This document shows, piece by piece, positions 45,934-48,726 of a stretch of DNA of 64,000 nucleotides. A program made the position numbers and the translations under genes. How positions within the stretch are numbered: position 1 is the stretch's first letter; every line of letters starts with the position of its first letter. This DNA is from Selenomonadales bacterium. GTDB taxonomy: Bacteria; Bacillota; UBA994. The notes below the pieces were generated by a model. It was not told where the DNA came from and searched no databases. It worked only from the letters and a program-made list of their open reading frames with translations. The stretch covers positions 248,001 through 312,000 of the forward strand of contig JAGXRZ010000020.1 of the NCBI GenBank assembly GCA_018335585.1, given 5' to 3'.

Positions 45934-48726
45934 TTATTGCGGCGCAAGCGCGCGGCGCAAGATATCGAAGCCCAGCACTTCGAGCACTGGTTGCCAGTCC
46001 TCTTGTGACTTTATCTTTATATCTGAGTTAAGAATGTAGTGGCCCATTTTTATGCGCCGAAACAGTTTTTTATTATATGGGTTCTGGCTGTCTGCCTCAT
46101 GCTTCGCCAGTAGGCTCGAGATATAGGAACGGCTCTTTCTGTAGGGCTGTACAACACTGTCCGGCAATGCCCTCATTGCTTCCGCGAGGTAAGCTGCCGT
46201 CAGTGCTCCGTTACGATGGGCTGGGTTACCAATGACAGCCATTAAAAGCACAAGAGCGACCTGAAAGAGAAGAAACTCCCCTTGACGGTTACTTAACTTC
46301 ACTAACTTATCGCCAACACGTAAGCTTACACTCGAGGGGGCTAGCAACTCATGCACCTGATAGACGGTTGCGGGGTCAAGGCCGCGCCCCCTTATAGCTT
46401 GGTGAAGTGAGATTTGCCATGCCGTAAAGCCGCTGTTGTCTGTCAAATCAGCGTTTGCGCCGCCCGAGTGCAGCTCTTTGATGAGGGGAACAACCCCTGT
46501 CCTAGCGGCAAGCATAAGCGGTGTCGCATTGTACTCATTGCGAAAATCAACGCCGTACACAGCACACTGCTTCAATATCTCTTTGTACAAACTGTTTGTA
46601 TACTTTGGAAGCAGGTGCGCGTACAGATTTGCTCTCTGTTGATCATACAACGAGGAGTTAACGAGCAGCCCATAATCACGTTGTGCGAGTATTTGCCGTG
46701 CCTTGGCGTAGTTTTGCCCACTCAGGAAAGCAATTATTGCTGGCGAGTCGTGAAAGAGTGCGTATTCAAAGAGCAGCTTTCTCGGTCTTTGTGGGTTATC
46801 TTTAGCCTGACGAATCTGGTCGGCTAGCTCTACAACTTTCGCCGGAGTAAAAACATCCCAAGGGACAGGCTGCACCTTTAAAATAGATTGCCTTATGCTA
46901 TCGGCTTGTTCCTGCTTGCCCTGCAGCTCTAATCTGCGGGCCTCTGCCTGCCATTCTGCTGTGGTAGACTGCTCAGCATTTATTGCGACTTCTTCCATAG
47001 CCTGACGCAACCCCATTAGACTAAGAATAGGGTGTGCCTCATCGCTCTCGATGATGTACAGCTTCTCTACGGCGCGAGTAACGGCAACGTACAACGAGTT
47101 TATAAAGAACTTGTAGACTTCTAGAGACTTGTCGGTTTTGTCTGCGGCTCGCATGAAATGGAGGTCGCACTCCATGTCCGCTTCGCTTACTCCCCTAACA
47201 ATCTCTTGAAAACTCTGCCGCTCCTCGGAGACGAAGTTAAGTAGGATGACATTTGCATATTCAAGGCCCTTCGCCTCTTGCACGGTGAACAGCAGAGGGG
47301 TTTCAAACCACTTTCGGGCCAAGATCTTGTCCTCACTGCGCATCACAATAACGGCAAACCTAGTAGATCGCCTGATGTTTTTGTTTAGCTCACTCTTGAC
47401 CTTCTGAGTATCCTTTAGAAGCAGCACCTCCCCATCTTTCTCAGAGAGGCTGTCCATCAGATAGGTGCTTTCCTTATCTACTGAACCAAATCGCCGTTGT
47501 TTAATTAGAATAAGTCTATTGGCCAACGTAGTGACCGCCCTAGAATTGCGAAAGTTTGACTGTAAGATGCGTGTCACTCGAGCTGTTTCAAGCTCTGCGC
47601 TGCTTAGGAGCATCGACTTTAAGCGGCTCCACGAGAAAAAGTTCGGATGTACAATTTGGTTAGAGTCGCCACAGAGCATAAACTCACGGGGATTTTTAAG
47701 ACTATTAAGAACAAGCTGGAGCTGTACGTTCGTTACATCTTGGACTTCATCGACCACGACGAAGTCGTATAGTGGCTTCACTTCACGCAGATAATCATAC
47801 GCTATGATATTGGGGTCATACAGGTGATTCTCCCCAAGAAAAACAAGATACTTCTCGAAGAGGTCATAAACCAACTGACGTTCAGTTCCGAGGTAGATCG
47901 ACTGTCGGACCCCGAGGCCGAGATACTCCTCCCGGCCCAAATAGGGGGCATCTAAGGCAGAGCCGGTAATTACGCCGCGAAATTCCTCGTATAGCCGATG
48001 GGCGTCGGCGACTCGCCGCTGCTTCGGAAATCTATATAGCCATTCGGCAAACCGGCTGAAGCTCACCTCCTTGCCTTCCGGGACGCGCATGGTTTCGAGA
48101 TACTCCCTGAAGGAGAGAAAGGACACGTCCTGTTCGCCGTTCTCATAATGATTACTACCATACAGCGCCCTAGCTCGTTCTGCCAGATACTGCGAATGAG
48201 TGACGTAGAGCCCCTGGCCGCGGAACAGCTTTAGTTTCTCAAGTGTGACGATAGTCTTGCCACTGCCTGCCGGCCCAATGATGATAAGCGGACAAATAGC
48301 GCGATATATTATAGACTGGTTAGGATCAAAGGATACAGCTCTTTCTAGGAAGTGAAAGCGTTTCTCTGTCGGGTTAACGTAGCTGACAGATGGTAAGGTG
48401 TCTGTGCTTATTTGCGCTTGGTCATCCAATGGCGGTATTTTTGCCTCGTCAATCTTGGCTCCCCTTAGAAACTTGGACCTGTCGTAGGCATGGTTGAGCA
48501 CTACCTCCAGCATTAGGGCGTAGCGCACTCCCTGATACTGCACTAGCTTAAAGATTAAGCGATTTGCGTCGTCGAGTCTTGCACTGTACAAATCAAAATC
48601 CGCCAACTTCTTGACAGTGGCGGAGCGAAAGTCATCTCTGGCGAGATGACCCGTTACCTTCTCGTACTGACGCTTAACCTTGGTATAGTCAATGTCGATA
48701 TATTCTAGGATTTTCATAGCAGCCAA
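45934..48726 (-). CDS. RelE-like domain, superfamily 1 helicase and ankyrin segment in one protein
   Basis: 930 residues. Residues 1-85 read like a RelE/ParE fold (LADFDLYSARLDDANRLIFK, LNHAYDRS). The helicase core has Walker A GPAGSGKT (151-158), Walker B DEVQD (326-330), GDSNQ (353-357), QSNFRNS (389-395), motif V around QEAKGLEYANVIL (483-495) and motif VI VAVTRAVEKLYI (547-558), as in UvrD/Rep-type enzymes. An ankyrin-like segment lies at 731-775; a C-terminal helical region of about 100 residues follows. No antitoxin gene is adjacent. The TTG at 48726 fits AAAGGA 8 bases away better than ATG 48717. Function unknown; genome defence or ribosome/mRNA surveillance are guesses. Confidence 0.8.
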   Translation of the reverse strand: MAAMKILEYIDIDYTKVKRQYEKVTGHLARDDFRSATVKKLADFDLYSARLDDANRLIFKLVQYQGVRYALMLEVVLNHAYDRSKFLRGAKIDEAKIPPLDDQAQISTDTLPSVSYVNPTEKRFHFLERAVSFDPNQSIIYRAICPLIIIGPAGSGKTIVTLEKLKLFRGQGLYVTHSQYLAERARALYGSNHYENGEQDVSFLSFREYLETMRVPEGKEVSFSRFAEWLYRFPKQRRVADAHRLYEEFRGVITGSALDAPYLGREEYLGLGVRQSIYLGTERQLVYDLFEKYLVFLGENHLYDPNIIAYDYLREVKPLYDFVVVDEVQDVTNVQLQLVLNSLKNPREFMLCGDSNQIVHPNFFSWSRLKSMLLSSAELETARVTRILQSNFRNSRAVTTLANRLILIKQRRFGSVDKESTYLMDSLSEKDGEVLLLKDTQKVKSELNKNIRRSTRFAVIVMRSEDKILARKWFETPLLFTVQEAKGLEYANVILLNFVSEERQSFQEIVRGVSEADMECDLHFMRAADKTDKSLEVYKFFINSLYVAVTRAVEKLYIIESDEAHPILSLMGLRQAMEEVAINAEQSTTAEWQAEARRLELQGKQEQADSIRQSILKVQPVPWDVFTPAKVVELADQIRQAKDNPQRPRKLLFEYALFHDSPAIIAFLSGQNYAKARQILAQRDYGLLVNSSLYDQQRANLYAHLLPKYTNSLYKEILKQCAVYGVDFRNEYNATPLMLAARTGVVPLIKELHSGGANADLTDNSGFTAWQISLHQAIRGRGLDPATVYQVHELLAPSSVSLRVGDKLVKLSNRQGEFLLFQVALVLLMAVIGNPAHRNGALTAAYLAEAMRALPDSVVQPYRKSRSYISSLLAKHEADSQNPYNKKLFRRIKMGHYILNSDIKIKSQEDWQPVLEVLGFDILRRALAPQ

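What the first reader, a model, noticed from the sequence alone, without database searches (positions are those of the whole stretch)
45934..48726. RelE-like fold fused to a UvrD-type helicase and an ankyrin segment, beside a tRNA pair
Seen: all SF1 helicase motifs, an N-terminal stretch with RelE/ParE character and an ankyrin-like C-terminal segment in one 930-residue protein, lying between tRNA-Asn and rpoD, where the usual trmK neighbour has been displaced. Known: RelE proteins cut mRNA on ribosomes, and tRNA loci are common island sites. Inference: a single-gene defence or RNA-surveillance system in which the helicase gates a nuclease-like domain. No antitoxin gene is nearby, so the toxin part is held in check within the protein, or is inactive.
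Basis: partly seen in the sequence, partly recalled or inferred. Interest (0 to 1): 0.6.

Follow-up and report, generated by a model that had tools for sequence, protein, structure and literature searches.

The report
Solitary mobile RelE–helicase–ankyrin fusion gene
A single bacterial gene joins an RNA-cutting-toxin-like part (RelE/YoeB fold) to a nucleic-acid motor (UvrD-type helicase) and an ankyrin segment, and turns up alone and at unrelated places in very different bacteria, which suggests a self-contained, mobile stress or phage-defence switch that still has to be tested.

Summary
The gene (stop 45934, start ATG 48717 or TTG 48726, minus strand; 927-930 aa) encodes a RelE/YoeB-fold domain (predicted structure pLDDT 93; best solved matches YoeB, RelJK, YafQ), a complete UvrD/PcrA-type SF1 helicase, a helical stretch, ankyrin repeats and a C-terminal domain without known relatives. 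In 51 diverse homologues K37, R53, H76 and Y78 of the RelE domain are invariant; R53/H76 align with YoeB's catalytic Arg/His. At least 579 relatives exist in many phyla; 30 of 30 genomes checked hold one copy, and no partner gene recurs. In near relatives rpoD is followed directly by tRNA-Asn–tRNA-Met: the gene was inserted between rpoD and the tRNA promoter. 23 of 31 homologue pairs with >=85% protein identity share no neighbours, and DNA similarity usually stops at the gene's ends. Full-length homologues sit on Shigella/EIEC plasmids. trmK displacement and tRNA-island integration are not supported. Best reading: a one-gene mobile conflict (probably defence) protein in which a nucleic-acid-sensing helicase licenses a ribosome-dependent RNase. 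The function is inferred. Closest published analogue: CoCoNuT CnuH.

The parts
45934..48726 (-). Gene for the RelE-UvrD helicase-ankyrin protein (930 aa from TTG 48726; 927 aa from ATG 48717, the family's conserved MKILEY start)
48460..48717 (-). RelE/YoeB-fold domain, residues 1-86 (ATG numbering); invariant K37, R53, H76, Y78, S81, F83
47023..48357 (-). SF1A (UvrD/PcrA/Rep-like) helicase core, residues ~121-565, all motifs intact
46582..46980 (-). Helical region, residues ~580-712, with conserved WxxEAxxLElQGKxEQA
46390..46581 (-). Ankyrin repeats, residues ~713-776
45982..46341 (-). C-terminal domain (residues ~793-912), conserved RxxRxYISxxLxKNE...YNxxLFxR...GxYxxN, no Pfam or PDB relative
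45925..48815 (.). Inserted segment compared with the empty site in near relatives (rpoD - tRNA-Asn - tRNA-Met)
48756..48800 (-). REP-like palindrome (GGGACGGTTCTTTTTGTC ... GGGCCGTCC) between rpoD and the gene; the same kind of motif borders the gene copies of other Bacillota
45890..45918 (-). Promoter (TTGACG-17-TATAAT) of the tRNA pair, conserved in the empty sites; the insert ends just upstream of it
45778..45852 (-). tRNA-Asn (gtt), intact, ancestral at this place
45693..45769 (-). tRNA-Met (cat), intact, ancestral at this place
48818..49942 (-). rpoD (ancestral neighbour upstream of the insert)

Best explanation
A solitary, horizontally moving conflict gene, most likely an anti-phage or anti-plasmid (abortive) defence protein. 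Shown: RelE/YoeB-fold N-terminus with invariant active-site-like residues, intact SF1A helicase, ankyrin repeats, one-gene mobility. Inferred: the helicase binds aberrant nucleic acid (single-stranded or recombining phage DNA, or RNA), possibly with a protein contact through the ankyrin part; ATP-driven rearrangement then releases or positions the RelE domain, which cuts mRNA in the ribosome and stops translation. Without a trigger the RelE domain is held silent inside the protein, so no antitoxin gene is needed.
For: RelE/YoeB fold: AF2 pLDDT 92.6, Foldseek YoeB/ParE E 1.8e-4, TM up to 0.68. K37, R53, H76, Y78 identical in 51/51; forced global profile alignment pairs R53 and H76 with the YoeB catalytic Arg and His. 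Helicase motifs invariant. Full-length architecture kept at 43-68% identity across Bacillota, Nitrospirota, Pseudomonadota, Bacteroidota and others and on plasmids. Patchy: 4/4 in its genus but at different loci, 1/4 in the rest of the family, 0/7 in the rest of the class, 5/299 in a sample of the phylum. Gene-limited mobility: 23 of 31 close pairs share no neighbours and DNA identity ends at the gene in 12 of 13 usable pairs. Empty site in close relatives. No antitoxin or other recurrent partner.
Against: No experiment. No clear enrichment in defence islands. No own model in PADLOC or NCBIfam; hits are to the shared helicase or ankyrin parts. The window protein has Ser45 where 47 of 51 relatives have Arg. 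Sequence similarity to YoeB/RelE profiles is sub-threshold. Trigger and direction of regulation are guesses.
Confidence: 0.5

Rival explanations
1. The RelE-like domain is not a nuclease but a binding or regulatory module (for example RNA, ribosome or gyrase docking, as in ParE); the protein is a nucleic-acid repair or conflict helicase.
For: Sequence match to active RelE families is sub-threshold; the column aligned with YoeB's Glu46 is not invariant (D/E/Q/A/T); ParE structures also appear in the Foldseek list.
Against: K37, R53, H76 and Y78 are invariant in 51 diverse proteins, more than a mere scaffold needs; the best structural hits are RNases of the YoeB/RelJK/YafQ kind rather than ParE.
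Confidence: 0.25
2. A chromosomal stress-response or RNA-surveillance factor (clearing stalled ribosomes or transcription conflicts) of general benefit, not defence.
For: Exactly one copy per genome in 30/30; neighbours are mostly metabolic genes; present in all four genomes of its genus.
Against: Very patchy beyond the genus, differing loci even within genera, plasmid carriage.
Confidence: 0.17
3. A gene that stabilises plasmids or other mobile elements: the toxin domain punishes loss of, or invasion by, competing elements.
For: Found on 132 plasmids, 114 of them of Shigella or E. coli.
Against: Mostly chromosomal; no antitoxin or short-lived partner; toxin and any inhibitor are one polypeptide, which post-segregational killing does not fit well.
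Confidence: 0.08

Closest known systems
CoCoNuT CnuH (PMC11090510)
   Same: One polypeptide joins a RelE/colicin D-fold 'RNase toxin-like' domain to an SF1 helicase; predicted RNA-targeting defence.
   Different: CnuH has a UPF1-like helicase and an SmpB-like OB fold and works in an operon with McrBC-type partners; its RTL domain showed no conserved RelE residues. Here: UvrD/PcrA-like helicase, N-terminal RelE with invariant residues, ankyrin, solitary gene.
YoeB/YafQ/RelE mRNA interferases
   Same: Predicted fold and Arg/His placement of the N-terminal domain.
   Different: Those are ~90-aa stand-alone toxins paired with an antitoxin gene; here the domain is fused to an ATPase and has no antitoxin gene.
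Gabija GajB
   Same: UvrD-like helicase region, best PADLOC hit (E 2.4e-11).
   Different: The match is partial (478-563 and a second stretch); RelE and ankyrin parts are outside it, and no GajA-like neighbour recurs.
Cami1 (CARF-RelE, CRISPR ancillary)
   Same: RelE domain fused to a sensor; its ribosome-bound structure appears in the Foldseek list (8phj).
   Different: Sensor binds cyclic oligoadenylate (cA4), no helicase; needs CRISPR signalling.
Schlafen proteins (general knowledge)
   Same: RNase-type core plus helicase domain in one antiviral protein.
   Different: Unrelated nuclease fold, different helicase subgroup (Pfam SLFN-g3 hit only E 0.016), vertebrate.

Membership tests
RelE/ParE (YoeB-like) toxin superfamily, domain level | RelE/ParE fold | tested here: met
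   AF2 model and Foldseek
RelE/ParE (YoeB-like) toxin superfamily, domain level | Catalytic Arg and His at the YoeB R65/H83 places | tested here: met
   R53 and H76 invariant and paired in the forced global profile alignment, a weak alignment that leans on the fold match; YoeB Glu46 place not invariant
RelE/ParE (YoeB-like) toxin superfamily, domain level | Ribosome-dependent mRNA cleavage | not testable with these tools
   needs biochemistry
Type II toxin-antitoxin system | Adjacent cognate antitoxin gene | tested here: not met
   none between rpoD and tRNA; no recurrent neighbour in 80 loci
SF1A UvrD/Rep/PcrA helicases | Complete SF1A motif set, profile similarity to PcrA/Rep | tested here: met
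CoCoNuT (CnuH) | McrB/McrC-type partners in the operon | tested here: not met
   no recurrent neighbours; solitary in the window
Gabija | GajA next to a GajB-type helicase | tested here: not met
tRNA-integrated genomic island | Insertion at the tRNA 3' end with integrase and att repeats | tested here: not met
   insertion upstream of the tRNA promoter, no integrase in the insert
Anti-phage defence system | Protection against phage | not testable with these tools
   needs phage challenge
Anti-phage defence system | Enrichment in defence islands | tested here: inconclusive
   scattered defence hits among 149 neighbours; random stretches of the same genomes also give some

The most novel reading that the evidence does not exclude
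A widespread, undescribed class of single-polypeptide immune proteins in which a UvrD-type helicase sensor and a RelE RNase effector are fused, kept silent without any antitoxin, and spread as a bare one-gene unit (in Bacillota bordered by REP/RAYT palindromes), including onto the large plasmids of Shigella.
Probability: 0.35. Interest if true: 0.75.

Novelty: new variant of a known kind. Interest (0 to 1): 0.55.

Why it matters
RelE toxins normally need a separate antitoxin. A family in which the toxin domain is built into an ATP-driven motor would show another way to keep an RNase silent until a nucleic-acid signal arrives, parallel to CoCoNuT and Schlafen proteins. The family is large, solitary and easy to test in E. 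coli K-12, and I found no mention of its homologue on Shigella plasmids in the papers searched. The gene-exact limits of its mobility also pose a clean question: how do single conflict genes move?

Tried and rejected
trmK displacement: rejected (empty sites lack trmK next to rpoD). Fixed housekeeping locus: rejected. Classic tRNA-integrated island: rejected for this locus; family-wide tRNA proximity not significant. Phage origin: no match in 50,697 phage records or IMG/VR. Toxin-antitoxin pair: no partner. Recurrent operon partner: none in 80 loci. Winged-helix reading of the C-terminal domain: no profile support, left open. Integron cassette: shared DNA ends 0-26 bp after the stop, too short for a shared attC. 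I first took the ORF in the G002 gap (L115) for a transposase; its sequence reads as an ABC transporter. The ant gene-transfer paper was irrelevant. Literature searches found no description of this fusion, within an open-access library only.

Full report
OBSERVATION. The gene occupies 45934..48726 on the minus strand. Two starts are possible: TTG 48726, with AGAAAGGA 8 nt upstream, and ATG 48717, which begins the MKILEY sequence kept in nearly all homologues. Residues are numbered here from the ATG. GC content drops from about 57% to 46-53% over the gene. The window lies in a 2.34-Mb, 69-contig draft genome.

DOMAINS. Residues 1-86: the window sequence alone hits nothing in Pfam, but the family profile's only PDB hits are YoeB toxins (E 0.21-0.24), and 8 and 5 of 51 members weakly match ParE_like and YoeB_toxin. 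The AlphaFold2 model from 51 sequences has mean pLDDT 92.6; Foldseek against the PDB returns YoeB/ParE 6n90 (E 1.8e-4), YoeB, RelJK, YafQ, HigB2 and the ribosome-bound Cami1, with target-normalised TM-scores up to 0.68. This settles the fold. In 51 diverse homologues K37, R53, H76, Y78, S81 and F83 are identical in all, and R45 in 47 (the window has Ser45). A forced global profile alignment with YoeB proteins of the same phylum puts R53 on YoeB's RLxY arginine and H76 on its C-terminal HY histidine; the score is weak, so this mapping leans on the fold match.

Residues 121-565 are an SF1A helicase: Pfam AAA_19, UvrD and Viral_helicase1 hits, invariant Walker A, DEVQD, GDSNQ, EAKGLEY and YVAxTR motifs, profile relatives PcrA, UvrD and Rep. 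Residues 580-712 are helical; 713-776 hold ankyrin repeats (all 53 homologues match Ank_2); the last ~120 residues form a confidently modelled domain without Pfam or PDB relative. The N-terminal domain is conserved nearly as well (58% mean column identity) as the helicase (65%) and better than the C-terminal part (44%), so it is not decaying.

DISTRIBUTION. Plasmid matches add Deinococcus, Thermus, Crinalium, Polymorphobacter, Methylosinus, Piscirickettsia, Cetobacterium, and 101 Shigella plus 13 E. coli plasmids at about 42% identity over 99% of the protein. Thirty of thirty genomes hold exactly one copy. No phage or viral contig holds it. The distant Cetobacterium relative matches over the helicase at 25% identity; by eye its N-terminus reads like RelE too.

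LOCUS AND MOBILITY. In G001, G003-G007 and G009 (same genus, family and class) rpoD is followed directly by tRNA-Asn and tRNA-Met. Alignment places the insert of the window between the end of rpoD (48816) and a point just upstream of the tRNA promoter (45924). In G002 an ABC-transporter-like ORF sits in the same gap. Within the genus, G000 has its only copy at rpoD, while G002 and G003 have it near 2-oxoacid oxidoreductase genes that in G000 lie on other contigs. G006, of another genus, has it 182 bp after a tRNA cluster and keeps an empty rpoD-tRNA site; its protein is closer to G002's (88.8%) than G002's is to G001's of the same genus (79.8%), well supported in the tree. Presence: 4/4 in the genus (one cut by a contig end), 1/4 in the rest of the family, 0/7 in the rest of the class, 5/299 in a sample of the phylum.

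Across the family, 23 of 31 homologue pairs with at least 85% protein identity share no neighbour within up to 8 kb (short contigs lower the chance of seeing one). Of 15 pairs aligned as DNA, two are cut downstream by a contig end; in 12 of the other 13 the main alignment (81-96% identity) runs from 1-142 bp before the start codon to at most 26 bp after the stop, the exception being L040/L046. This is no formal test, as the species distances are unknown, but L038/L049 (95.6% protein identity, 15 and 12 neighbours, none shared) is hard to explain by drift of the flanks. The moving unit appears to be the gene itself.

A REP-like palindrome (GGGACGGTTC...) lies between rpoD and the gene (48756-48800). 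A short form of the motif has 58 hits in the genome, and hits flank both copies of a 282-codon Y1-transposase frame (C33, C52). GGGACGGTTTCAG directly abuts the start codon in G002, G003 and G006, ACCGTCCC lies a few tens of bases upstream in G046, and a related GGGGACAGTCCC lies just after the stop in G001. The chance of a motif within 100 bp of one gene start is at most 0.5% in G000 and 0.1% in G002 and G006; the G002, G003 and G006 cases are not independent. Whether the REP/RAYT machinery moves the gene, or REPs merely mark safe landing sites, is open.

NEIGHBOURS. No neighbour family recurs in more than 6 of 80 loci. Of the 149 nearest neighbours a few match strong defence models (type II/III methyltransferases, RmrA, ZorC, PDC-S27, MADS); 149 genes from random stretches of the same genomes also gave some, mostly generic, hits. 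The tool does not tell which members matched, so island enrichment is inconclusive. tRNA proximity: 3/44 against 8/454 (p 0.06).

FUNCTION. Shown: an RNase-toxin fold with invariant active-site-like residues, fused to an intact motor and to ankyrin repeats, in a gene that spreads alone. From established knowledge of RelE toxins (A-site mRNA cleavage) and of helicase-coupled defence proteins, the most likely use is conditional translation shut-off upon sensing foreign or damaged nucleic acid. The sensing step, the silencing in cis and the target are inferred. The closest published design is CnuH of CoCoNuT systems (PMC11090510): a RelE/colicin D-like domain plus SF1 helicase, but UPF1-type and in a larger operon; its authors detected no sequence conservation with known RelE members. 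I found no paper on the present fusion, within an open-access library only.

VERDICT. New variant of a known kind (toxin-RNase/helicase conflict proteins).

Noticed in passing
48756-48800; also 27260-27350 and dispersed over the genome: REP-like GGGACGGTTC palindromes, 58 motif hits in the genome, flanking two copies of a Y1 (RAYT-type) transposase frame on contigs C33 and C52, and bordering the RelE-helicase gene in the window and in other Bacillota copies.
   Followed up: partly
L038/L049, L055/L069, L024/L028, L071/L075, L002/L017: Homologues 85-96% identical in DNA share little more than the gene: similarity ends within tens of bases of start and stop codon. How a bare gene moves so exactly is unexplained.
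   Followed up: partly
plasmid records: A full-length homologue (42% identity) is on 101 Shigella and 13 E. coli plasmids, mostly annotated as UvrD-helicase or hypothetical protein; a few copies look broken into pieces.
   Followed up: no
L115:3344-5011: In the sister genome G002 the same rpoD-tRNA gap carries an ABC-transporter-like ORF, so this gap has taken up foreign genes at least twice.
   Followed up: partly
L146:9860-12721: Cetobacterium plasmid protein: distant relative (25% identity over the helicase) with a RelE-looking N-terminus, directly downstream of a sigma-factor-like HTH protein.
   Followed up: partly
L096:5397-5857: In G046 a small RelE-looking ORF with a possible antitoxin ORF sits next to the fusion gene, and a PIN-looking ORF lies on the other side (by eye).
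   Followed up: no
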